Translations under genes and position numbers: made by a program
Notes under the pieces: generated by a model
What the model was told of the DNA's origin: nothing
What the model saw: the letters and a program-made list of their open reading frames with translations, nothing else
Database searches by the model: none
From: Clavelina lepadiformis
Lineage: Eukaryota; Chordata; Ascidiacea; Aplousobranchia; Clavelinidae
DNA length: 64,000 nt
NCBI RefSeq assembly: GCF_947623445.1
Contig: NC_135245.1
Coordinates: forward strand, 20,467,501 to 20,531,500
Reading direction: 5' to 3'
In this document: positions 3,389 through 49,879 of the stretch, one piece after another
How the letters are laid out: every line of letters begins with the position of its first letter
Numbering within the stretch: the first letter of the stretch is position 1

Positions 3389-5219
3389 ATGTCATCAAGT
3401 GGTGCTCCCCCCAAGCCTTGGGAGATAAACCGGGGTCAGTCGCCCGGTAACTATAGCAACCTGCGATCATCTGCTGAGATGGAAGAAACTCGTACGGCCC
3501 CCCCGGTCCCAACCCGGCCCTCCCAACAGCAAGTGGGTTTAAATTGTTTCGTTTTCAAGATTTTTTTTATTGTTATTTTTTTTAATTTTTTATTGTTCTG
3601 TCACTAGAGGGCATCATCTCCTCTTTACCGACCAGGTTATGGGGGTCTGGGTTACGGCGGTTATGGAGGAACGTACGGAATAGGTTACACCTCACTATTT
3701 TATTAAAGGCATTTCTGCTTCCAGTTGTAGCCAGTTAAATAAAATAAATTAAGAATTAAACTGTGGGTTTTATATCGCCTCAACGGCTGCTTGAATTTTA
3801 TCTGGAAAACTTTCATCTGATTGTTCGGCCTCATATTGTGTGTAATAATTCGCGTCAGGTGGATATGGTGGTATGTACGGAGGAGGAATGTACGGAAGCT
3901 CAGGCATGTACGGCTCACCGTATCGAAATTATTCTTCTTTGAACAATGCCGGTAGTTTCACCCAGCAAGCTGAAGAGAGCACGCGGCAAGCCTTCCAATC
4001 AGTTGAAAGCATCGTTCGAGCTTTCTCCTCGGTAAGAGCCGCCACGACCATCTGCTCACTGCGTTGTCGCTGTTTTGCTCATTTAAATTCTCTCATCAGG
4101 TCTCGGCGATGTTGGAGTCCACATTTGGCGCTGTGTACAGCTCGTTCCGTGCCGTACTTGACGTGGCCGACCACTTCTCTCGGGTCAAAGCCACATTCAC
4201 AGACATCTTATCTTCAATTGCTGTTTTCAGGTATGTTTGAATCTTTGTAGTTGAAACAGCAGACTCTATGTTTAATTGAAATTCATCGGCAGACTTTTCC
4301 GTTATCTTTATCGTCGAGCGATGGCAGCATTGGGCGTGCACCCGTGTGACGAGGCGTGGGAATCAATCAAACCGACATCAGCTGCTGCAGTGAGTGAACA
4401 ACACTAAGCTGAGGCATTGAGCTTATGAAAATTTATTTGCGATGTATATTCCACTCGATAAGAAACAACAATTCGAATATTATATCAGTAAGATGTTAAT
4501 GTGAACTTTTTCCATCTTTAGAAACCAAGCACGCCATCAGAGAAGAAATCGTGGCCAATCATGTTGTTTGTCGCTGTTGTGCTTGGAGGACCATACCTTA
4601 TATGGAAGTTGTTAAAGGGAATGAGCTCACAAAAGTATGAGGTAAAATTGTGGCCAGCGGTAACACACTGGTGATTGTCGATGACATTTCAGGCCGGACG
4701 CATCGACATGGATGAACGGAGATGGGGATCATGTGATTGCACGGGCAGAGTTTGACTTTCAAAGTGAAAATGACGAGGAATTATCATTCCGAGCCGGAGA
4801 CAGACTCATTCTCGCCCCAAGAGGTCAGTCCCAGCCCAGAGAGAATTATAAGATAGATATCTTATAATTCTTTTCACATCTGCAACATCTGTTTGATAGA
4901 CCAACAACCCCACGTAAGGGGATGGTTGCTAGGGACGGCAGATGGAAAAAAATCCGGATATGTGCCAGCCAATCACGTCAAAGTATTAGGACTACGAAGA
5001 GGACGAAGCCAAGCCCAACTCCCATCAACCAATCAAACAACAGCGACTGATGAAAGTGACGCGGTAAGCCAACACAAGGAGCATAAATTTTAGAACTTAA
5101 TGTGTTGAAACCAAATGTCCTGAATTTCACAAATAAAGCAACGATTGCACAATTGTTACAATGTCTTGTTGCAGTGGAAAGATATCCATGGAAATGTGAG
5201 AAGTCTCGATGGGAAGTGA
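3389..5219 (+). CDS. PEX13: PEX13, peroxisomal import docking protein
   Basis: Nine coding exons join in phase: 3389-3532, 3608-3683, 3859-4031, 4100-4230, 4293-4389, 4522-4634, 4693-4823, 4900-5063 and 5175-5219, giving about 357 residues against 403 in human. PEX13 is an integral peroxisomal membrane protein that docks PEX5 and PEX7 cargo receptors with PEX14. The N-terminus PPKPWE, the Gly/Tyr-rich segment (repeated GYGG and MYG units), QQAEESTRQAFQSVESIV, the membrane segment ending VVLGGPYLIWKLL and a C-terminal SH3 domain (ARAEFDF through GYVPANHVKVLG) all match the family in order. The last exon is short; an alternative is read-through of the preceding donor to a TAG shortly after 5063. 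It is convergent with WDR25. Confidence 0.95.
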
Positions 5220-13700: not shown

Positions 13701-15605
13701 GTGATATCTCCGGGCAAGTCAACGTCAATGCTTACTCCTGTTTAACGGTTTTGGTAAACAATTTCAAATTTTAGAATGACAATGAAACAAAATTATGCGT
13801 TTATTTGCAAATTTGCACAAACACAAGTTTGATCACCGGGAGTGGTGTTGAGCCATTGCTGAGATGTGCGAAGATTTTCTTCATTCAAAGAGTTAATTCA
13901 CAATCTACCGAGTAAAGCTCGTAGCAATATTAATTTTGATTGCAATTTTTGTTGGAGTAATTGTCAAATATTTTTGAGCTAACTTATACATTACTCAAGC
14001 ATAAGAATGCAGAGAAAGCATTGCAGGGTACAGGGTACAGTGCTTTAAGTTGGCCAAACTGGAATTTCCAAAAACCCAGTGTAGACGTTGACAATTTTGT
14101 TGTGTGTGTTACAATGTGTCTATGAGATGAAGCTCTGTTGCAGAGCATTTTGCATCTCCAACTCCCACATTCAACATGGATGAGTCAAATTTCGATATTT
14201 TAGATCTCAGCAAACAAAGACTCATTTCGCAAGACGTGGAATCCAAAATACACTCTTCGTAGTCACTTTGATGGAGTCCGCGCGATCCGATTTCTTCCCA
14301 ACGAGTCAGCGGTGATCACGGCATCAGAGGACCACACAATGAAGTTGTGGAACCTGAACAAGCCACTTCCAAGCAAGAAGACACAGTCATTGGATGTTGA
14401 GCCGATCTACAGCTTTAGAGGACACATGTATGTTCGCCATCACCATTGTTATGTTCCACGCTCCTTCAACAAACCTTCACTTAAAATCATTTTATTTCCT
14501 AGCGGTCCTGTCTTGTGTCTAGAGGTGGATGCTGATGGGGTGATGTGCTACAGCGGTGGTCTCGACGCCTCTATACGCTGCTGGAAGGTTCCCAGCGTGG
14601 CCATCGACGCTTACGATACATATGGTAGTCACAGTTGGCTTATCTCGCATTTTATCTCCATTTAAAAATTAAACTCATTTATAACATCACAGACTCTACT
14701 ATTGCCGGCGATGTTCTGATTGGTCACACGGACGCGGTGTGGTCCTTGTCATACTCATCTCCACGACAACGACTGCTCTCTGCTGCCGCTGATATGAGTG
14801 TTCGATTGTGGAATCCGATGTCGAATGACCCCCTCGTGGACACCATCAACATCCAAGGTCAGTTAGCTTTCTGACGTCACACTCGGGGTTATTTATGCAC
14901 AAATTTATGAACCAATCACGTGTGCAGGTGATGCGACGCCAACTTGTGTCGAGTTTGTCAAATGTGACACAACACAAGGTGTCGTCTCACTCTCTGACGG
15001 GAGGTTGAACCTGTTTGACCTCGAAACCGGAAAGATTTTGTCGACGTTGGCCGAAGGGGACGGAAGTAAGTGACGTGATGACGTATTTGGGATTCGTCGA
15101 CACAGTGATCACATTATTATGACGTCATACGCAGGTCGCATCAACTACGTGGTGAGCCACCCCACCATGCCGCTGACGATCACCGCACATGACGACAGAC
15201 ATATCAAGTTTTTCGACCACAACTCAGGTATGACTCGGCACATGACTCAGCTGGCCTGCTTGTAACTCTTCCGTGCGCAGGTGAACTCGTGCACTCGATG
15301 GTGGCGCACTTGGACTCGGTCACGAGCCTCTCCGTCGACCCGAATGGTCTATATCTATTGTCCGGCAGTAAGTACCAAGTTATTACGTCATAAGCAAAAC
15401 TCGCGACGAGCATTCAATCAATGGGCCATTGTTAGGTCACGATTGCTCCATAAGGCTGTGGAACCTGGACACGAAAACATGCATCCAGGAACTGACGTCA
15501 CACAGGAAGAAGTTCGACGAATCGATTTATTCTGTGGCCTTCCACCCCAGCGCCACATATATCGCCAGTGCGGGTGCCGACGCGCTCGCCAAAGTGTTTG
15601 TATAA
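10740..15605 (+). CDS. STRN: Striatin, B-type PP2A regulatory/scaffold subunit
   Basis: Eighteen coding exons join in phase: 10740-10781, 10854-10967, 11061-11164, 11541-11608, 12195-12267, 12347-12499, 12663-12795, 12860-12947, 13028-13132, 13251-13346, 13411-13532, 14204-14427, 14503-14624, 14693-14857, 14928-15065, 15135-15227, 15281-15367 and 15436-15605, for about 698 residues (vertebrate STRN, STRN3 and STRN4 have about 750-800). The N-terminal block MPGILHFIQHEWSRFEMDRA, the coiled coil with ARIAFLQGERKGQENLKRDL, and GRQLLRQYLQEVGYSDTILD are near-identical to striatins. The C-terminal half, from about residue 366, is a WD40 propeller (TASEDHTMKLWNLN, SAAADMSVRLWNP, SHDCSIRLWNLDTKTC). 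Striatin scaffolds the STRIPAK complex linking PP2A to GCKIII kinases. As a single invertebrate gene it is probably co-orthologous to all three vertebrate striatins. Confidence 0.96.
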
Positions 15606-22700: not shown

Positions 22701-23793
22701 AACCGAATTTTAGATGGAAGGAATCGGAATTATTTCGGCCATTCTACGACTGCAAATGTCTATAAAGTAAAGTATTCAAGGAAATGCGGCGGTTGAAATA
22801 ACTGTGAATGAAAAAGACTTTAATTTCGTCCTTAGACCGACTACAAATTCTGTTCTAGGCGAGGCTGGAAATAATTTTTTCAAAAATCGAATCTGGGCAA
22901 ATTAGTTGGGCCTGGCGACGTCTTCGTTCACTTCCAGTATTAACACTTGCAACATCGTTGGTTGCCTGAAAGAGTTTTTGTTTGTCAAAATTGAAATCAC
23001 TTTTAACTCTGTCCGTCTCTAGTTTTTAAGGTTTGTGTTCAAAGTTCTAATCATCGATGTATCTGCAACTACAGGTGATTCAACCGACTGTGACTCGTGC
23101 CCGATCGAACCTTGCAAGCTTGCTCAATGCCCGAAAAATCCAACCGCTCAGTGCGTTACGGATGACTGCAGTTGCACTTCATGGTTCATTGACCACGACT
23201 TGAACGAAGTTGATTGCTTCGGAGGTTGTTGAGTCTTTTGATTGACGCGCTCAGTAATTCAGCGCCGGAAGTTTTAGCTCAAATTGTTCAACTTTTGTCA
23301 ACAGAAAACACTCAGACCATTCCCGGCTTCCTGCTCCCTGGTATCGACGGGGAAGTCCCTATTCCGCCCATCGACGTTGACGAGGGAGGAGGTTCGGACG
23401 AAGTTGACTTTCCGTTCCCCCCTAACCTCCCCCTCCCACCAACGAGCGTATATTCCCCACCTGGTGACAGCCTGGACGTGGGGCCGACTTTGAAACCCAA
23501 ACCACCCCCAGCCCAGCCTAGCGGAGTCACTGATAACCCACCAGATGCAGCTAATGACGTCATATTGCACGTGGTTATTGCGTCATGCGTCGTATTCGTG
23601 TTCATTATTCTTTTACTTCTCGCTTGCAAGGTAGGTTCTAAATAATCCCCGACTGTCAATGTCACGTTCGCTTTTAACCTTTGACCTTCCTCAGGTCGCC
23701 AGTCATCGCAAGAAATCGCTTCATCGAACGTCATACGAGGAACAGCTCAAACCTCTCAAAGTTGATGTCGAGAAAAACGGGAACAATAACTAA
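19767..23793 (+). CDS. Unrecognised cysteine-rich type I membrane protein
   Basis: Eight coding exons join in phase: 19767-19791, 19874-19995, 21511-21598, 21744-21893, 21978-22046, 23075-23224, 23263-23630 and 23695-23793, for about 356 residues. Seen in the sequence: a signal peptide (MKLFVLVTVFFLV...), several short cysteine-rich modules (CPFCSSTCREAGFMSC; an EB/lustrin-like module ending DIAVCC near residue 125; CPIEPCKLAQCPKNP near 158-172), a Pro-rich stalk (residues about 215-295), one membrane segment (VIASCVVFVFIILLLLACK, about 305-323) and a basic tail of about 33 residues with a YEEQL motif. That predicts a cell-surface protein with a small cytoplasmic tail. I do not recognise the family. 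Exons 6 and 7 are joined across a 38-nt intron; without it the frame meets a stop, so an indel is the alternative. AATAAA lies at 24468. Confidence 0.72.
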
Positions 23794-25136: not shown

Positions 25137-27130
25137 TCAATAAAAATAAGGTGGAGTGGCGTGGCATTTTTTCTTCCTGCAGAAGAAACAAGTCATCCGG
25201 ACACTGGAAACTGCAAAAGAGTTCAAAGGTTAGTTGTGGCGTTGAGTGGCCGCCCCTGCGAAACACCCCCCTGCACTCACCTCTGCACCTCCCGCAGCTG
25301 TACTTGTAATACTTCTTATTGTTCCTCCACACAGTCGAGCAGTAGCTGCTCCAACACTTCCTACCAACCCCGCCCACGCTGCGCCCTGCCGCCCCTACTC
25401 CTGGTTCAGGGACAGATTCTAGAACTGCCTGTTCTACCTCCTGTTCAGATGGGTCTAGGGTCGGGTCTGCTTCCAGTTGGTTGTTCGAATAATAATCCAG
25501 GATGTCGTCAAATGTATAAGGACAGTTTTCCTTTACAGACGTGAACGTTTGCAATATGACGTGATAATGCGCTCTATGACACTCAATTGTGACGTCTTAC
25601 CTCATCATTTTCGCACCGCCTCACAATTTCCGGAATCAAGTCACAACTGTGAGGGAATTCCCCGTCGACACAGGTGACGACACTAGGACCAGTGAGCTGG
25701 TAGTTTTCCTTGCACTCGACGGAGCAGGAACGCGCGCGGTCGTCGCCGTGCGTTTGGTCGCAGGAGGTCACGGTCGACCTTACCTCGAGCAACGAGATCT
25801 CGCAATATCGCAATTCTTAATATTACCAAACAATTATTCGTTTATTCGGCATAAAATAGTGATTTGTTTTGATGACGAAATCACTTGTTACGTCATAAAC
25901 TACTCACCCAGTGCTTGGCAGTTAACTTGGGTGAAAGCTCCATTTACGCATCGCGCCACCACGCCACCATGTGGTTCGTAACCATATTCACACTGAATCG
26001 TGCATTCTGTGGCGAATCCGGCTTTTTCGTCGCTGCATGACGCAATGTGACCGTGTTTGACCTTCAAGTGCTCTTTTATGCAATGGGTTCTCGGGTTGAC
26101 GACTGCGAATAAATACTATGTTGCTTTGTTACGTCACAGACCTGCTACATCACAAAGGTTGTAGAGACTTACAATTGTAGTCGATCGAGAAGCCGGAGTG
26201 CGGCTGGAAGTTGGATTTCCGGGGGGCGGTGACAAATTGCATCCTTACTTTACGCCTCGTGGAAATATAAGTAAATGGCGTCTCCAGGTAGCCCGTGTAG
26301 ATGATGCCTACGTCATCATCGCTCATGCGACCGTCGAACACCTGAAAAAATGAAATTCTGAATTGTGGCGCAAGGACGAGCTTTATGACAAAACAATGCA
26401 GACTTACTTGCAAGTAATCGTGCGGTTTTCCGTCTGTTTTGGCAAAGCTGAGAGAAAAAGATTTAAAAGTGAGGACGACAATTTCACCTTTTCGCGCCTT
26501 CACCACGTACTCCAGGTGAAGGTTCCCGGGGTAGGTGTACGAAAAACTACCACTAGGTCGCTCCAACGGGCTCTCGATGGTCCCCCCCTCTCTGTCGTTG
26601 TGCAGGATTTCAGTCCCTGAGACTAGGATAAAATATTTTAAGATTAAAACTTTGCTTAATTCGTCGAAATGTTTTTCTCAGGTTTAAAATTGTCTTTTGT
26701 TTTCAATTTTCCTCCCAAGCATTGACGTTTGTCAAGCAGTGACGTCAGCAAAACACTATAATTAACTCTCCGTGGTCAACATTTCTTGTGTGACGTCACA
26801 ACAACTTATTTACTTGAAATTATGCAGTCAGGCGTGAAACTTGAGACTCGAGGAGAAGAAGAAAGTTTTGTTGCAAAAGAATTTGAGGTTTTTATCTTTT
26901 TTATCTGTTTCAATTATTTCACCAACAAGATTCACTCAAAAAAGCAGATCTCTTGCCACAGACTCACTGTTGCTTACGTCATCTGAAGAAACCTACGCTT
27001 GTCAGGACAAATTAGAAACGTTTCCGAGTCAACAATATTCTAGAATATACATGGCAACATTTCATCATGTCTGACGTCACTCACCTGCCCACAAAAGAGC
27101 CGACATCGTAGCGAATCGAAGCAGAAACAT
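25137..27130 (-). CDS. Secreted CUB-like/CCP/Cys-rich protein, paralogue A
   Basis: Seven coding exons join in phase: 27130-27085, 26622-26408, 26341-26173, 26102-25908, 25815-25601, 25530-25281 and 25210-25137, for about 387 residues. Order: signal peptide (about 1-16), CUB-like beta-sandwich (about 17-144, with YLQVFDGR and VRMQFVTAP), a first CCP-like module with six Cys (145-209; ATECTIQCEYGYEPHGG), a second with seven Cys (210-281), then a C-terminal region beginning NCPYTFDDILDYY and ending in a compact domain (CWSSYC, SCGRC, TCFFC, KKKC). The CUB-like domain contains no cysteine, which is unusual. The neighbour upstream is a clear duplicate with identical intron phases. A TATA box lies about 50 bases before the ATG. 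Function unknown; secretion and ligand binding are inferred from the modules. Confidence 0.85.
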
Positions 27131-28097
27131 TTTCAACTTAACTTGATGCAGATCTGATTCAATCAACGCTCCAGGCGACATATTTATACCTTTCGTCGAA
27201 ATCTTTTTTTCTTAGTTGCCTTTTTCTCGATTTCAAACTCACTTCAAAGTTCGAGAACTTTCGCAGCAACTTCATTGAATTTCGATTTCGCATACTGCTT
27301 GTGTGATGTCATAATGAATAGCGCTAATGACAGCAGAAATACCGGAAATGTTTTCTCTTTTGCTGCAATAGAGCGGCCAAGAATCGTGACGTGTTTACTC
27401 AAAATTTGTTTAAAATAGCGTGCGTCATAAAATGTTTCCTTCACCGAAATGTCACTGGTCAAGATGACGTCAAGAGTTTTGCAGCAACACTCGCTCGAAA
27501 CAAAACTGCAAAGTTGCTGCAACTTGAAAGCGGAAACTTTCACACAGGTCATTGCACTTTGACCTCGTTTAACCCTATCTACTTGTGACGTCGGTCTTGG
27601 ATAGCGTTTAAGGTTTTCGTGGTGGCCGCTCAATCAATCTCAAGCAAAATTTCCAAACTTGCGGGGAATTTTACTTCGAGACTCCGATAAAGCTTGAGGC
27701 ATAGCGCGGTAAAACACTCGGCTGACGGGTTTGCCAAATCACGTTTCCTCAAAAAGATGTGCGTGTCTCGCGCGCAGAATCTGAGGAATGTTTTCTCTCA
27801 AACCAAGTCATCTCTAGTCACGTGATCAGCCCCTTTTCCTGGGCGCCCAGGTCACGTGTGTGACGTGTGACATTTTCACTTTCGCGATCAAGCTTTCACA
27901 AAGGACAGTTCAACAAAAAATTCATTATTGTCCAAAATAAAATGTATTTTTTCGCAAAACGTTTCAATGAAGATGCGTGTGACGGCATAATAAGCGTCTA
28001 TGATGTTGTACACGATGATGTCATAGGAAGCAAGTTTTTTACAGAGCAAAACATCGACATAACATAAAATGAATGGTGAGCTGAGGCGCTGATGATG
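27131..28097. other. Spacer between the two CUB-like paralogues
   Basis: About 970 bases contain the promoter of paralogue A and the 3' UTR of paralogue B. One TGACGTCA lies near 27463. Several short E-box or CACGTG-like words occur around 27820-27870 (TCACGTGATC, GTCACGTGTG). No other gene was seen. Confidence 0.45.
27181..27188 (-). promoter_or_regulatory. TATA box of paralogue A
   Basis: On the minus strand the sequence reads TATAAATA, ending 50 bases before the ATG at 27130. At the usual 25-30 base distance the transcript would start near 27155, leaving a 5' UTR of about 25 bases. The equivalent position before paralogue B also has a TATA-like element. Confidence 0.65.
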
Positions 28098-29632
28098 TCA
28101 TCCGGCGAGATAGGAGGGCGGCGGTCGGTTGCATTGCGTCACGTAGCGACAGAATACGCAAGCCTTACGTAATCGGGGCCCTGAAACAACATGTCAATGA
28201 CGTCACAAAGCTAAAAACTGGAGAGGGGGAAATTACCTTTGCATCGGCCGCAGTCGTAGGGGTAAGGGGGCGCTGGGACTGTGTTCTTGGCGCAGTATTC
28301 GGCGAAACAACGCAACCCACCGGCCGCGTTTCCCAAACGCACGGTAGGGTCAGGAAGATTATCCAACCAGACTTCTTCACGTATTTGCTGTGAATGTGTC
28401 AAAGTGACGTCATCTTGCAAACGATTTCCGTCGTAGAAGTCGATTATTTCCTCGATCGTATACGGACAATCAGTCTGCAAAGAGCGCATGAGCTTCGAAG
28501 ATTTGTGGGCCAAAATAATCTCACCTGATCGGTTAACTTACCATGTTGTTTCTCTCGCATTCCACTATGACGTCATTCCTTAGTGAGCACATCGGTTTGG
28601 TGTCTTCAACAACGCAACCAGTGACGTCAGAAAGGTAATTGTCAGTGCAGCGGACCATGCATCCCCCCTGTTGGCTGCCCTCCCCGCAGGGGATTATCCT
28701 ACTGCCTCTCAGTTCTTCGTCTGTGAGCTCACAATAGCTGGGCACTAAAGCGGATATAATACGTCACCATTATCAGAAATTCTTATTGTTGACGTCATCA
28801 CCACTCACCTATCTGTTGGCACGTGACCGAGGTAAAGGACCCGTCGACACAACGCGCTGTAGCGCCACCCTGGGGTTCGTACCCATTTTCACAACGAATC
28901 GTGCAGTTGGTCGCGAAACCAAAAGATTCATCGAGGCATGACGTGTCCATGACGTGCGGAAGTTGAAGGGTTGACACGGCGCAACGGTTTCTCGTGTCGA
29001 CAACTGTTAATTATGAAGTAATAAGACTCGTGCAGCCTGTGTTTAAAGGGAAGCAGCAACTCACAGTTATATTTTATTTGGAATCCTCTGAGCTCTGCCA
29101 CGTGATCTGTGACGAAGAGCATCCTCACCCTCCTCGTGCTCGACACGAAGCGTCTCGGAGCTTGTCCTCCGGTGAACTTCTTCCCCACCTTGTCGTGCTT
29201 CTTCCTCCCGTTGAACACCTGCGCAATAAAGCGACCTTTGTTTACTAACGATCAAGTGCTTTATGACGTAAATAGAATAACATACTTTCAAATAATCGCT
29301 GAAATCGAGAAGAAAATCGAGAAATTCGAGAACAACGACGTAATCATCACTCGGGGCGTTTATGACGTAACTTTGTTTGAAATTGGTGGGATATGGAAAG
29401 GGGTAATTTGGACTGGAAAATACTCCCCCATTTCTGTTGTTGAACCATAACTTTGATCTTGACCCATCTGAAAAACACCAACATATCTTCACTTTCTCCG
29501 CTTATGACGTCATAAAGGAAGACAACAGCATGACGTCGGTGTCAAAGTGAGATATGCCTGGCGCCTACCTGTGCTGACGTAATAATAAGAGGCCAGAAGG
29601 AGGATGATTGTCCACAAATTCGTCATCTGCAT
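28098..29632 (-). CDS. Secreted CUB-like/CCP/Cys-rich protein, paralogue B
   Basis: Seven coding exons join in phase: 29632-29569, 29467-29286, 29218-29065, 29003-28809, 28744-28542, 28474-28237 and 28180-28098, for about 372 residues. Same order as paralogue A: signal peptide (about 1-21), cysteine-free CUB-like domain (22-134, with GGVFSSPNYPFPYPTNF and VFNGR), CCP-like 1 (ATNCTIRCENGYEPQGG), CCP-like 2 with seven Cys, and the C-terminal region starting TDCPYTIEEIIDFY and ending with CFAEYC, YDCGRC, CVFC and a last Cys. Intron phases (1,0,1,1,0,1) are identical in the two genes and the fourth coding exon is 195 bases in both. The start is the first ATG after a TATA box. Likely an extracellular protein; substrate or partner unknown. 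Confidence 0.85.
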
Positions 29633-29660: not shown

Positions 29661-29670
29661 TAATATATAA
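29661..29670 (-). promoter_or_regulatory. TATA-like element of paralogue B
   Basis: The minus strand reads TTATATATTA, about 30 bases before the ATG at 29632. If used at the normal distance, transcription would start almost at the ATG, so the 5' UTR would be only a few bases, or the real start lies further upstream. Confidence 0.5.
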
Positions 29671-43839: not shown

Positions 43840-45762
43840 TCATTGCAAGAAACTTAAAATGTTGTCTGATATTGAACGGTAAAGTTTTTGATCCAATGGC
43901 GGCACTAAGGAGCTAAGAAGATGGGTCAGATCTTGCGAAGAAAACCTGCATCCGACCATCCTTGTTTGCAGGAAGGTTGTGATGGCGACCATCTCATCGA
44001 GTCCTGGAATGATCTCAACATTTTCAATGAAACCTTTCTTCACATGGAGTTGAATCAAAATCTTTCCCAGGGCTTCATTCAAAAATTCTCTTTTCAAACT
44101 AAACTCCGGTGTTTTCCCAAATATCCATTCCCACGATGAGAGCTCCTCACGGTACTTCCCCACGCCAGGCAACAACTTTTCGTCATTTGTTGAAATTTCA
44201 TAAACTTCTGAGCTAGTGTGTTTGCGTTGGTAAATATCGACCACTTTGCTGCAAATGAGGTCAAAGGTCAGATGGTTGTCTGCGTCAACCAGATTGAGAA
44301 CACTGGAACGAACACTAGATGTCGCTTTACAAGTGATATCAATTTTTGCCGAAAGAGTTTTTATGACTTGGGTCTTGTTGGCATCAAGCAACATTGTGCA
44401 ATGATGATAGGTGCTTCGACGTCCAAGTTTTGACGAAGATCCAGAGATTTTGTGCCTGAAAGAACAACCCATAATGCTTTACGAGGATAGTTCTTAACTG
44501 AAGGCCTCGATACATGCTTTTTATGGCCCTCTACCCTGTTAAAATCTCATTTTCAAGCTGGAAGTTGTGAAGCAATTATGCATTTTCAATGATAATGATG
44601 GTTGACCAAATCAGTTTTTAAAATTAACAAGGTCAATAAAATTTTCATTCATTCAAGATCGAGATCAAGAAAGTTAGAACTCAATCCTTTCTTTTTTAAA
44701 GGAAATGGTTAAAAAGAGCGCACTGAAGGCTGCAAATACTTTCCCTGTCCTGACTTTAGCCAGTCAACATTGGGGTGCAACAAGCACAGTTAAAATATTT
44801 GGGGGTACAGTTGGCTTCACAATGGTTTATTATGACACCATCAAGTACCTGTCATTAAGTATGATGTCATCTCGCTTGTTTATTGCAACGTCAAGATTTG
44901 GCGACAATTGTTGCAGAGCAGCAACGATGACGCGTAAGTTGGAACATCTGTCGTAGCTTGAACGATCCGAGAAGAAAGTAAAGTTGATGTTGCCGAGGTC
45001 GTGGTAGACCGCACCTCCGCCGCTCCTCCTTCTACAGATGTGGATCTCCCTCCTCAGCAAGTCTGAAAAGGTCAAGTTCACGAGATTGAGTTTTGATTGA
45101 CAGATTGCACTGATATTTATAAACAGTTAATTTGATGGCAGTTATGCTAAGGTTTAATTTGAAAGGGGACAGCCTAGTCTAGAATAAGGCTAAGGATTCG
45201 GCCCTAGTACACAAGAGCACAACCAAATGATGTCACAATTTGGGTAGCTGGGGTCTAGTATACAAAGGCATCCTGCTGTTGTGCACTTGCATACCAGACC
45301 CAATGATTCTATGTAATAACTATCAGGTCTAAGACTGTAAGAGGAAAAAGGCAAGGTAAAGTTCACAAACTAACTTGAATTCGAATCAAAGTGGATTAGA
45401 AATTTCAAAACCTTGCAAATTTGATGGATGATTGATTTTCACTGTGTCAGTGTATGGCTGCACGCAGTTGACTCAAATTAACAAACCCACTTTTGCTCGA
45501 TAACTGGCAAACCTGTAACTGGACATTCCTTCCATGGGTTCTGGTGTCTACCAATAATAACTGAAGGCTCATTTCTCCAGATGAACAGGCAGTTTGAAGA
45601 CGAGAAATCAACTTTTTCGTACATCCAATCTTCAAAGGCTAAATTTTGGTAAGGATCTGTAGCTTTGGTGGTGTACACAATGCATTTCTTTGTTGATTTT
45701 CTCCTAGCAGGTGATTTAAAATAATTGGACGCAGAATTCCGTAATAAACCGCGAGCACACAT
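43840..45762 (-). CDS. LIPT1: LIPT1, mitochondrial lipoyltransferase
   Basis: Three coding exons on the minus strand: 45762-45513, 45062-44849 and 44455-43840, in phase, for about 359 residues (human 373). LIPT1 transfers lipoyl groups to the E2 subunits of 2-oxoacid dehydrogenases in mitochondria. Landmarks: DPYQNLAFEDWMYEKVDF, EPSVIIGRHQNPWKEC, the signature RRRSGGGAVYHDLGNINFTF spanning the lipoate-binding loop, and KISGSSSKLGRRSTYHHCTML, then WEWIFGKTPEF near the end of the catalytic core. The N-terminus (MCARGLLRNSASNYFKSPARRKS) is basic and free of acidic residues, as for a mitochondrial targeting peptide. An acceptor (AATTGCAG) ends 24 bases before the ATG, again suggestive of trans-splicing. 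Convergent with SAMD4. Confidence 0.95.
45177..45300. repeat. Dispersed repeat in LIPT1 intron 1
   Basis: The segment with CACAATTTGGGTAGCTGGGG and GCATCCTGCTGTTGTGCA has an inverted relative at 59758-59835 (complement of CCTAGCTACCCAAATTATGA). A low-copy interspersed repeat; family not identified. Confidence 0.45.
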
Positions 45763-47137: not shown

Positions 47138-49879
47138 GGCAAATAAAAGATCAATAACCGCCTCAAAATTGAACTTTTCGAGCTTTCGCCGAAGCAAAAT
47201 CAGCGATAATATCTTCAAAATCAAGTTTTTGAACGTATAATGTCTTTCTATAGAAAGAATCGATAGAGCTGATAGCCGATCATCATTCATGGTAGAACGT
47301 AAATAGGACTTTATCATTTTGAGCTTTGAGAAACTCCTCTCACAGCTCGCAATTGAAACACCAATGGTAAGATAAAGTTTCAGACGCAAGCATAAATATG
47401 GTAGGCCTACGTACTTGTTGAATCAAGTAGGTGTGATTTAGCTAACCACTGTAAAACATCAAACGCTGTTGCATTACGATCAAACGTGGTTTCACTGCTT
47501 CGCACCAGCCTCTTAAATCTGTCAATTTCCACAGCTAGCTCCAAAAAGTCCACCTCGTCGTCATAAGTGCTTCTAAAAGCGTTGGTGAATCCATTGTGAC
47601 TTTCGCTTTGCAGCAGCGCGTGAGGATTCAAAAATCCAAACATATATTTCAAGTGGTGTATGCCGGTAAACCTAGTTTCAGCTTCAAGTTTAAATCTGTC
47701 CAATGCTTGAAACATGCATCGTCTTACTTCTCCAAAAACACTAAGGCCAGCATCTTCTGCGTGTTCGCCAGGCACTCTCTTTTTTCTGCGAACTCTCCGA
47801 TCTTCAACTGGAATCTCTAGCTCTGCGCATTTTTTGATCGCTGCATCCACAGAACCTTTAACCAGATTATCTCATTCTTCCACTAAAAAGTTGACAAACG
47901 CTTTCATCTTGTTAGAGCATTGCGCTAACAGCAATCCTTTTCTGCAAGTAAGTTTAAGTATGATGAGATTCTCGCAGGATTACTTTCCAAAAACATAAGA
48001 AGAAAAAGAAAGAAAAATTCTGAATCGCTTCTAGAATACTATGAGCGTCACCTCGTGTATTAAGATTTTCGTTTGGATTACATAGTTCCTCTAGACTCTA
48101 GAGCAGTGGTTCTCAACCGGGGGTCCGCGAAACGTTTTCAGGGGGTCCTTGAGAACTTCGAAATTTGCAACATAAAGTACGAGTTTTAAAAATTTTTTTG
48201 CTGTTTATCATTGCTTTTTGAAATAGGCTGGAACATTTGCTTAATTGCCTATTGTGATGGGACAATACGAAAGCTTATTGAGATTTATCACCCGCAGGGA
48301 AGGCCTATTGTGATGCAATAGATTGCGGATTATACGAGAAGACAGCTGGATACAGTGATTTTAAGTTGCTGGAGATTGCACGTAATCGCTTTCTCAGTTT
48401 TAGCTTGTAACTAGCAGCTTGTTGTGAGCAAGGTATAGATAACGCTTTGAAATAAATAAAAATATCCGCATAGTTTTATGTTATCGTGAATGAATAGCGC
48501 AGTTGTGCACCAAGACTATTAAGTAAAACTAAGCAAAGCAACATTTAAGTGCAGTCTCAGAACCCTTAGTTTGCTTAAACTTCAGGGGTCCGCCAACTGC
48601 TTTGACAGCACCAAAAGGGGTCCGCCAAGATCAGAAGGTTGAGAACCACTGCTCTAGAGCATCCATAAACTCATTAAAACCTGCGTGAAGGGCCTTTACA
48701 GCAGCGTGATGTGCGCTCCATCGCGTATCAATCACTCGCTTCAGCGCGATTGGCGCCTGCTTTAGAAGGACATCCCCTCTATGAGTAGAGGCAGCAAAAA
48801 AACATACTTCGTAAAACAGCGAAAATCTGTCGCTTAAATGCAACGATCCGACGGCATGAACATCTGCAAGATTCAGTGTGTGATTTCCACACGGTACGAG
48901 TAGTGCTTTTGGATTTATGTTTTTGATTTTTTGCTGAACTCCAGTATGAATTCCCGACATAGTAGATGTGTTGTCGTAGCCTTTTCACCTACACATCATC
49001 ACATCTAAGTTGTTTAGTTCAAGTTCATCTAGAATAGATTGAGAAATTTCAGCTGCCGTTTTTCCGCTCAACGGAAAGAAATTCAAAAACGATTCCTTCA
49101 GTTGGGCAATACTGTTTTTGATTGTTACATATCTGACTATAAGAGTCATTTGATCAGTATGTGATACGTCCGGAGTACTGTCGCACATAATCGCAAAATA
49201 TTTAGCTTCGCGCACCTCTTCAAGAACGATGTTTTTGACTTTTTTACTGAGAAGCAAAATAAGCTCATTTTGAATAGTGGGAGAAAGATAAGTAGTTGTC
49301 ATCTTCGTAGAAATACGAATATCAGAAAGGTATTTGATGATTACGGGACTATATTTTTCCAGAAGCTTCACAGTCTCTAAAAAATTCCCTTGGTTGTTGA
49401 ATTCAAAAGCTTCACGATGTCCGCGAAAAGGAAGGTTTTGCTTACTTAGAAATAATATGACATCAACAACGCTTTCTAAAATTGCTTTCCACTTTTTTCG
49501 CTCTTCATCCATATAAATGGTGATCTATAACTTCAGGCCAAGAGGCCACATCATTGGACAAATTGTTGACTATTGCAACTGCTTCGTCGTTATTTTCACC
49601 TTCGTCTCCATCTATAACTGGCAATGCATAATTGATTTCATTGGTATTACTTTTGATAGACCCTGTTTCTTGCGTTTCTGCTGATATTTTCAGGATCTCT
49701 CTGGAGCTCAGCGTTATTGTCTGGGTTTTCATTTGAATCGTTCTCTGGTAATGTTAAAGAAACATTTGAACCAGAAGAGGTTACAAATTTTAGCATAGCT
49801 CCCTTGTGCTTTTTTAATTCTGCTTCTCTTGCTTTCTCTTCTTTTTAAAAAAAGCTCCACTCTCTTTGACACGTTTCAT
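47138..49879 (-). pseudogene. hAT-family transposase, decayed
   Basis: The reading starts MKRVKESGAFFKKKRK near 49879, typical of ZMYM1/TTF-type hAT proteins. It continues with the catalytic-core block FAIMCDSTPDVSHTDQMTLI, then KGYDNTSTMSG near 48985 and VPCGNHTLNLADVHAVGS. It ends with the dimerisation domain ASCERSFSKLKMIKSYLRST near 47300. The expected product is about 700 residues. The frame is broken more than once: a TGA stands just before KGYDN, frame changes occur near 49510 and in the C-terminal half, and a 548-bp MITE sits in the middle. It therefore cannot make an intact transposase as it stands. Confidence 0.88.
48104..48651. mobile_element. Inner hAT-type MITE (548 bp) inside the transposase
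   Basis: Perfect 15-bp terminal inverted repeats CAGTGGTTCTCAACC / GGTTGAGAACCACTG and a perfect 8-bp target duplication CTCTAGAG at 48096-48103 and 48652-48659. Subterminal GGGGTCCGCGAAAC and GGGGTCCGCCAAGATC are typical of this widespread hAT MITE type. It is the youngest layer of the stack. Confidence 0.93.

What the first reader, a model, noticed from the sequence alone, without database searches (positions are those of the whole stretch)
25137..29632. Tandem pair encoding a CUB-like/CCP/CCP/Cys-knot-like secreted architecture that I do not recognise
Two adjacent minus-strand genes share domain order, intron phases (1,0,1,1,0,1), a fourth coding exon of identical length (195 bases) and a C-terminal region with eight conserved cysteines that starts CPYT-(F/I)-x-(D/E)-I and ends CGRC...C-x2-C...C. 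The last domain is split by an intron at the same place (after CGRC) in both genes. I know of no named family with this order, so it may be a tunicate-specific secreted family expanding by tandem duplication.
Basis: partly seen in the sequence, partly recalled or inferred. Interest (0 to 1): 0.72.

Follow-up and report, generated by a model that had tools for sequence, protein, structure and literature searches.

The report
Paired sea-squirt secreted CUB–sushi protein genes
Two neighbouring genes in what looks like a sea-squirt genome encode related, probably secreted proteins made of familiar binding modules (CUB and sushi) plus a cysteine-rich tail that matched no known family searched, so they are a modest new arrangement of known parts with an unidentified end piece.

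Summary
Two minus-strand genes, A (29632-28098, 372 aa) and B (27130-25137, 387 aa), share seven coding exons, intron phases 1,0,1,1,0,1, a 195-nt exon 4 and 38% protein identity (E 2e-75). All 21 cysteines are conserved; synonymous sites are saturated (pS 0.83, pN 0.41), so the pair is old and constrained. The CUB (cysteine-free) and first sushi are clear; the second sushi is weak. The C-terminal module (nine conserved cysteines, counting one at the end of exon 5) had no convincing match in Pfam, NCBIfam or PDB sequences and no further copy found in its own 209-Mb genome. It lacks CxGxC and CxC, so "cystine-knot-like" is not supported. Nor is "expanding": I found one further relative, gene C on another contig, with the same CUB and sushi-1 exons (again 195 nt) but a short tail. 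"Tunicate-specific" could not be tested. Best reading: a small old family of secreted binding proteins, possibly disulfide-linked (odd cysteine count), with an orphan C-terminal domain. In passing: TGACGTCA is about 30-fold over-represented in the window.

The parts
29569..29632 (-). Gene A exon 1: ATG and hydrophobic, signal-peptide-like start
   Evidence: 17-residue hydropathy window 1.27 at residue 3
29065..29467 (-). Gene A exons 2 (29467-29286) and 3 (29218-29065): cysteine-free CUB domain
   Evidence: Pfam CUB E 5.1e-16; no Cys
28809..29003 (-). Gene A exon 4, 195 nt: sushi/CCP 1 with six cysteines
   Evidence: Pfam Sushi 25.4 bits on the exon alone, cut-off 20.7
28542..28744 (-). Gene A exon 5: degenerate CCP 2 (six cysteines) plus the first cysteine of the C-terminal module
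   Evidence: cysteine spacing; exon-5 profile has no PDB match better than E 0.13
28237..28474 (-). Gene A exon 6: orphan C-terminal module, CPYT...CGRC
   Evidence: no Pfam match at E 10
28098..28180 (-). Gene A exon 7: last three cysteines (CVFC...C) and stop
27085..27130 (-). Gene B exon 1: ATG and hydrophobic, signal-peptide-like start
   Evidence: hydropathy window 1.56 at residue 1
26173..26622 (-). Gene B exons 2 (26622-26408) and 3 (26341-26173): cysteine-free CUB domain
   Evidence: Pfam CUB E 2.3e-8; no Cys
25908..26102 (-). Gene B exon 4, 195 nt: sushi/CCP 1 with six cysteines
   Evidence: 54% identical to A exon 4; Pfam Sushi on the whole protein E 1.9e-5, 2 stretches
25601..25815 (-). 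Gene B exon 5: CCP 2 (six cysteines) plus the first cysteine of the C-terminal module
   Evidence: best Pfam Sushi stretch of B is residues 238-260, in this exon
25281..25530 (-). Gene B exon 6: orphan C-terminal module, CPYT...CGRC
   Evidence: no Pfam match at E 10
25137..25210 (-). Gene B exon 7: last three cysteines (CFFC...C) and stop
29661..29670 (-). TATA-like box of gene A (TTATATATTA)
   Evidence: read; not tested
27181..27188 (-). TATA-like box of gene B (TATAAATA)
   Evidence: read; not tested

Best explanation
Genes A and B encode two old, constrained paralogues of a probably secreted multidomain binding protein: signal peptide, cysteine-free CUB beta-sandwich, two six-cysteine sushi-type modules, and an orphan C-terminal cysteine-rich module (C-x6-7-C-x52-55-C-x4-C-x13-14-C-x2-C-x8-C-x2-C-x4-5-C). 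Shown: gene structure, homology, CUB and first sushi identity, conservation of all 21 cysteines, and a third relative (gene C) that keeps the CUB and first sushi but in which the rest was not found. Inferred: the CUB-sushi part is the ligand-binding arm; the C-terminal block was added to, or lost from, a CUB-sushi core at a phase-1 intron; and because 21 is odd, at least one cysteine is free or bridges two chains, so the C-terminal module may make the protein a disulfide-linked dimer that clusters its ligand. In A the CUB has acidic residues at the three places where calcium-binding CUBs have theirs; B has one of the three, so A and B may bind differently.
For: Shared seven-exon structure and 38% identity, E 2e-75. 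Pfam CUB and Sushi. CUB profile of A, B and C matches cubilin at 3.7e-46, neuropilin-2 at 5e-24, C1r at 2e-17. First-sushi profile matches complement receptor 1 at 2.6e-14 as the sum of many repeats (best single one 9.3 bits) and E-selectin at 0.0034. Purifying selection: pN 0.41 against saturated pS 0.83 over 357 codons. 21 of 21 cysteines conserved, P 2e-9 if identities fell at random. Gene C with exons 2-4 of 191/157/195 nt, phases 0,1,1 after them, and a possible 110-nt last exon.
Against: No homologue in another animal could be looked for. Secretion rests on a hydrophobic start only: in the 17-residue hydropathy scan (six best windows shown per protein) the highest window of A is not the signal peptide (1.27) but one inside the CUB at residue 65 (1.41), which I take for a beta-strand. 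The odd cysteine count could equally mean one free thiol or metal-binding cysteines (CxxC-x8-CxxC is constant in both). The calcium-site reading rests on hand comparison with the cubilin alignment and on recalled knowledge of CUB sites. In LEV-9, the nearest functional parallel, the cysteine-rich WAP domain is dispensable for clustering (passage of PMC9083331), so that parallel gives no support to a role for the C-terminal module. Gene C's first exon was not found and its last exon is only an open, correctly phased stretch.
Confidence: 0.5

Rival explanations
1. CUB plus growth factor, as in PDGF-C and PDGF-D (recalled): the C-terminal module is a signalling ligand of cystine-knot type kept latent by the CUB and sushi domains and released by cleavage.
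For: CUB at the N-terminus and a cysteine-rich domain at the C-terminus of a probably secreted protein.
Against: No CxGxC, CxC or CC in either C-terminal module; no Pfam growth-factor match even at E 10; no furin-type R-x-K/R-R site, though plain dibasic pairs occur in both.
Confidence: 0.08
2. The C-terminal module is a zinc-binding or redox module: CxxC-x8-CxxC has fixed spacing in both genes and CGRC resembles a thioredoxin-type CxxC (recalled).
For: CxxC-x8-CxxC constant in A and B.
Against: No Pfam match; the only zinc-finger chain among the PDB hits had E 1.7; zinc knuckles are rare in secreted proteins (recalled).
Confidence: 0.12
3. The C-terminal module is a shortened, decayed CAP (SCP/PR-1) domain.
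For: Profile of the two sequences hit two hookworm ASP-2 chains at E 0.011 and 0.013, the best two of four hits.
Against: Neither sequence alone hits any CAP chain at E 10; Pfam CAP not reported at E 10; no H/Y-Y/F-T/S-Q signature; no other CAP chain was listed, although PDB holds several (recalled); the module is about 105 aa, CAP domains are longer (recalled).
Confidence: 0.04
4. Complement-type factor: a non-protease relative of C1r/C1s/MASP acting as pattern recogniser or regulator in body fluid or tunic.
For: CUB profile matches C1r, C1s and MASP chains; the first-sushi profile matches complement receptor and factor H chains.
Against: No EGF or protease domain found by Pfam; cubilin and neuropilin score better than C1r/C1s/MASP.
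Confidence: 0.2

Closest known systems
CUB-sushi proteins of the SEZ6 and CSMD families
   Same: CUB together with sushi domains in extracellular proteins (SEZ6: start of abstract of PMC8081827 gives 2-3 CUB and 5 CCP; CSMD2: start of abstract of PMC6506821).
   Different: CSMD2 is a single-pass membrane protein with repeats of both domains (same abstract). A and B are short, show no evident membrane anchor and end in an orphan cysteine-rich module; their CUBs have no cysteines.
C1r / C1s / MASP proteases
   Same: CUB and a CCP pair in one secreted protein (their full domain order is recalled); CUB profile match.
   Different: No EGF, second CUB or serine protease domain found.
LEV-9 and Hig (secreted CCP proteins that cluster receptors)
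   Same: Secreted CCP proteins; LEV-9 adds a cysteine-rich WAP domain to its CCPs (passages of PMC9083331; that WAP is cysteine-rich is recalled).
   Different: No CUB named for LEV-9 or Hig in those passages; 8 and 5 CCPs; no WAP match in A or B; LEV-9's WAP is dispensable for clustering.
Oikosins of the Oikopleura house
   Same: Tunicate secreted proteins, some with CUB (oik4, oik6) or CCP domains (passages of PMC3390340).
   Different: Sequences not compared; the passages seen describe no CUB-CCP-CCP order.
Fester / FcoR of Botryllus
   Same: Tunicate family with a sushi domain (passages of PMC12065747).
   Different: Ig domain and transmembrane segments instead of CUB and secreted form; fester is highly polymorphic, uncle fester monomorphic.

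Membership tests
CUB domain | Pfam PF00431 above its cut-off | tested here: met
   A 59.4, B 34.8, C 59.5 bits against 21.4
CUB domain | four conserved cysteines (often, not always, present) | tested here: not met
   0 cysteines in CUB exons of A and B and in gene C's CUB (sequence). PMC9083331 (passage) says the consensus 'often comprises' them, so this does not expel it
Sushi/CCP (first module) | Pfam PF00084 match | tested here: met
   A's exon 4 alone 25.4 bits, cut-off 20.7; 4 of 5 sushi-type modules of A, B and C match at E 10. Whole proteins: A 20.1 (just under), B 25.4, C 20.6 (just under)
Sushi/CCP (second module) | second module is also a sushi domain | tested here: inconclusive
   Six cysteines in similar spacing to the first; B residues 238-260 match Pfam Sushi; profile of both gives no PDB hit better than E 0.13
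Six-cysteine (selectin-type) CCP | two extra cysteines between the first and second CCP cysteine (feature recalled) | tested here: met
   C-x14-C-x10-C-x3-C-x13-C-x9-C in the first module of A and B; E-selectin hit 0.0034
Cystine-knot growth factors (PDGF, TGF-beta, NGF type) | CxGxC and CxC knot cysteines (recalled) | tested here: not met
   none in A or B C-terminal module; no Pfam hit at E 10
CAP superfamily | Pfam CAP match and HYTQ-type signature (recalled) | tested here: not met
   against this, the profile hits at E 0.011 and 0.013
C1r/C1s/MASP | EGF module and C-terminal serine protease (recalled) | tested here: not met
   no such Pfam match at E 10
SEZ6/CSMD | membrane-anchored arrays of CUB and sushi repeats (CSMD2 from abstract, SEZ6 anchoring recalled) | tested here: not met
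   one CUB, one to two sushi; among the six best hydropathy windows of each protein those outside the N-terminus lie in the CUB
Tunicate-specific family | present in tunicates, absent elsewhere | not testable with these tools
   no other animal genome was searchable; prokaryote and viral collections gave no confirmed relative

The most novel reading that the evidence does not exclude
The C-terminal module is a new extracellular domain fold, in this genome found only in this gene pair, that covalently dimerises a CUB-sushi binding arm, so the pair would be a new kind of secreted ligand or adaptor that arose by joining an orphan exon block to a CUB-sushi core at a phase-1 intron.
Probability: 0.3. 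Interest if true: 0.5.

Novelty: new variant of a known kind. Interest (0 to 1): 0.3.

Why it matters
If the C-terminal module proves to be a distinct fold, it adds a domain family and an example of how secreted proteins gain parts by exon shuffling. Otherwise it is one more arrangement of CUB and sushi modules, which are common in animal secreted proteins. Gene C, with the same core and a different end, gives a simple comparison for the gain or loss of the module.

Tried and rejected
CAP-domain reading of the C-terminal module: rejected after single-sequence PDB searches and motif tests. Cystine knot: rejected on spacing. Origin from bacteria or viruses: no relative confirmed in prokaryote genomes (38 pattern matches) or viral contigs (78 pattern matches). 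Further copies of the C-terminal module: whole-genome searches with each copy listed three places each, all in A and B (at E 1, 14 at E 10); this search scores only best candidates and splits at introns, so distant copies may be missed. Recent tandem expansion: rejected on saturated synonymous sites. Literature searches for the architecture: I saw 25 of 177 papers, 16 of 16 and 12 of 89, as listings with the starts of abstracts, plus passages of four papers; none of what I saw describes this order. One search (Clavelina transcriptome, 15 of 76,834 seen) gave nothing useful.
Full report
What is there. Two genes lie head to tail on the minus strand. Gene A runs 29632-28098 and gene B 27130-25137; each has seven coding exons. 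One exon start (B exon 5) I first placed wrongly; with the AG at 25817-25816, read, the frame is restored and the exon aligns with that of A. Both begin with a hydrophobic, signal-peptide-like stretch. In a 17-residue hydropathy scan, of which the six best windows per protein were printed, the other high windows (residues 64-65 in A, 61 in B) lie inside the CUB; A's CUB window (1.41) is higher than its signal peptide (1.27). I take it for a beta-strand, so secretion is likely, not shown. TATA-like boxes stand upstream of both ATGs (read).

Is it real. The proteins align over 376 columns at 38% identity, E 2e-75. Over 357 codons, synonymous sites differ at 0.83 (saturated) and non-synonymous sites at 0.41. 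At DNA level one stretch of 159 columns, almost all in exon 4, aligns well (69%, E 1e-11); the two other pieces listed are chance-level (E 0.08 and 0.93). This is what an old duplication under purifying selection looks like. All 21 cysteines coincide; random placement of the identities would give that with P 2e-9.

Domains. The CUB is certain, although it lacks every cysteine. The first sushi is above the cut-off in A's exon alone and near or above it in the whole proteins (A 20.1, B 25.4, C 20.6 against 20.7). The second is weak but has six cysteines in similar spacing to the first. The final module, about 105 residues, has no match in Pfam at E 10 or NCBIfam at E 1. In PDB sequences a two-row profile gave four hits up to E 10, the best two being ASP-2 chains at 0.011 and 0.013; B alone gave four hits, none better than 0.68; A alone gave none.

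Relatives. Searching the host genome (G000, 209 Mb, 95 contigs) with each C-terminal module listed three places each, all in A and B. Searching with whole A at E 1 gave 67 places, many of them CUB domains of other genes. Apart from A and B, the one place where matches cover the CUB and the whole of this sushi is C2:389669-390355; three other places matched the sushi part alone and weakly (E 0.014, 0.21, 0.72), and I did not look into those. A second search with that gene as query, at E 0.01, gave 44 places; its sushi part was matched only in A, B and itself. I call it gene C. Its exons 2-4 are 191/157/195 nt with the same phases, its CUB is also cysteine-free, and it then seems to end in a 110-nt exon with a stop. 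No second sushi or C-terminal module was found within 29.7 kb: the only hits beyond the CUB and first sushi were one of B's second sushi to gene C's own sushi (E 0.014) and five at E 3.1 or worse. Its first exon was not found. So the family that I found in this genome has three members, two with the module.

Organism. The genome note for Clavelina lepadiformis gives 210.1 Mb in 102 scaffolds, chromosome 1 at 28.79 Mb, 2 at 26.54 Mb and 6 at 20.77 Mb (passages). Here the assembly is 209.06 Mb in 95 contigs, C2 is 26,529,800 bases, C1 reaches at least 28.64 Mb and C6 at least 20.53 Mb. That is close but not identical. Ascidia mentula has 95 scaffolds but 197.0 Mb (passages). I treat the species as likely, not shown.

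How it may work. CUB and sushi modules are known mostly as protein-binding modules (recalled). An odd number of conserved cysteines implies a free or inter-chain cysteine. The simplest mechanism is a secreted, perhaps disulfide-dimerised binding protein. By hand comparison with cubilin, A has acidic residues at the three expected calcium-site positions, B at one. All of this is inference.

Verdict. The architecture is an unusual combination of common modules with an orphan end. The cystine-knot and expansion claims fail; lineage restriction is untested.

In passing. TGACGTCA occurs 30 times in the window against 0.93 expected (0 of 100 shuffles reach 30). Genome-wide it occurs 19,339 times against 4,891 for the same word read backwards: about four-fold, 0.93 per 10 kb, so the window (4.7 per 10 kb) is some five times richer than the genome. 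The first places listed on C1 recur at equal distances, so part of the genome count comes from repeated blocks. In 14 of the 57 loci then held, chosen not to overlap each other or the window (66.2 kb), it occurs 24 times with expectations that sum to about 1; 17 of the 24 lie in the three stretches around gene C and 7 of the 14 loci have none. Flanks of the 30 window sites show no longer repeat. Three of them lie inside gene A's coding exons, where they encode Asp-Val-Ile or Asp-Val-Thr at places where B is at most partly the same. Two literature searches listed 10 of 102 and 15 of 149 papers; none of those listed contained the word TGACGTCA.

Noticed in passing
window, 30 sites from 8025 to 61061; genome-wide: Palindrome TGACGTCA is about 30-fold over-represented in the window (30 against 0.93); genome-wide 19,339 against 4,891 for the reversed word, partly in repeated blocks. 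No longer shared flank at the window sites. It resembles the highly iterated palindromes of cyanobacteria (recalled) and deserves its own study.
   Followed up: partly
28405, 28568, 28622: Three of the 30 TGACGTCA sites lie inside coding exons of gene A and encode Asp-Val-Ile or Asp-Val-Thr where paralogue B is at most partly the same.
   Followed up: partly
G000 contig C2:389673-390578 (L036): Gene C: dispersed relative with cysteine-free CUB and six-cysteine sushi (exon 4 again 195 nt) and a short different tail; first exon not found.
   Followed up: yes
G000 contigs C3:6653785-6655992 and C4:22846342-22868619: Long open reading frames (823-860 aa) with several CUB-like repeats read through in one frame, in local clusters (open-frame lengths; two of them translated, in whole or part).
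   Followed up: no
1097-2764 +; 3852-4247 +; 14207-14662 +; 43843-44478 -; 48988-49524 -: Neighbouring coding stretches, 5 of 10 submitted: Sec1 family, peroxin-13, WD40 protein, lipoate ligase, and DUF4371 (transposase-like by recall).
   Followed up: no
23023-23645 +: Open frames with a cysteine-rich part and a hydrophobic end next to gene B; no Pfam match at E 0.1.
   Followed up: no
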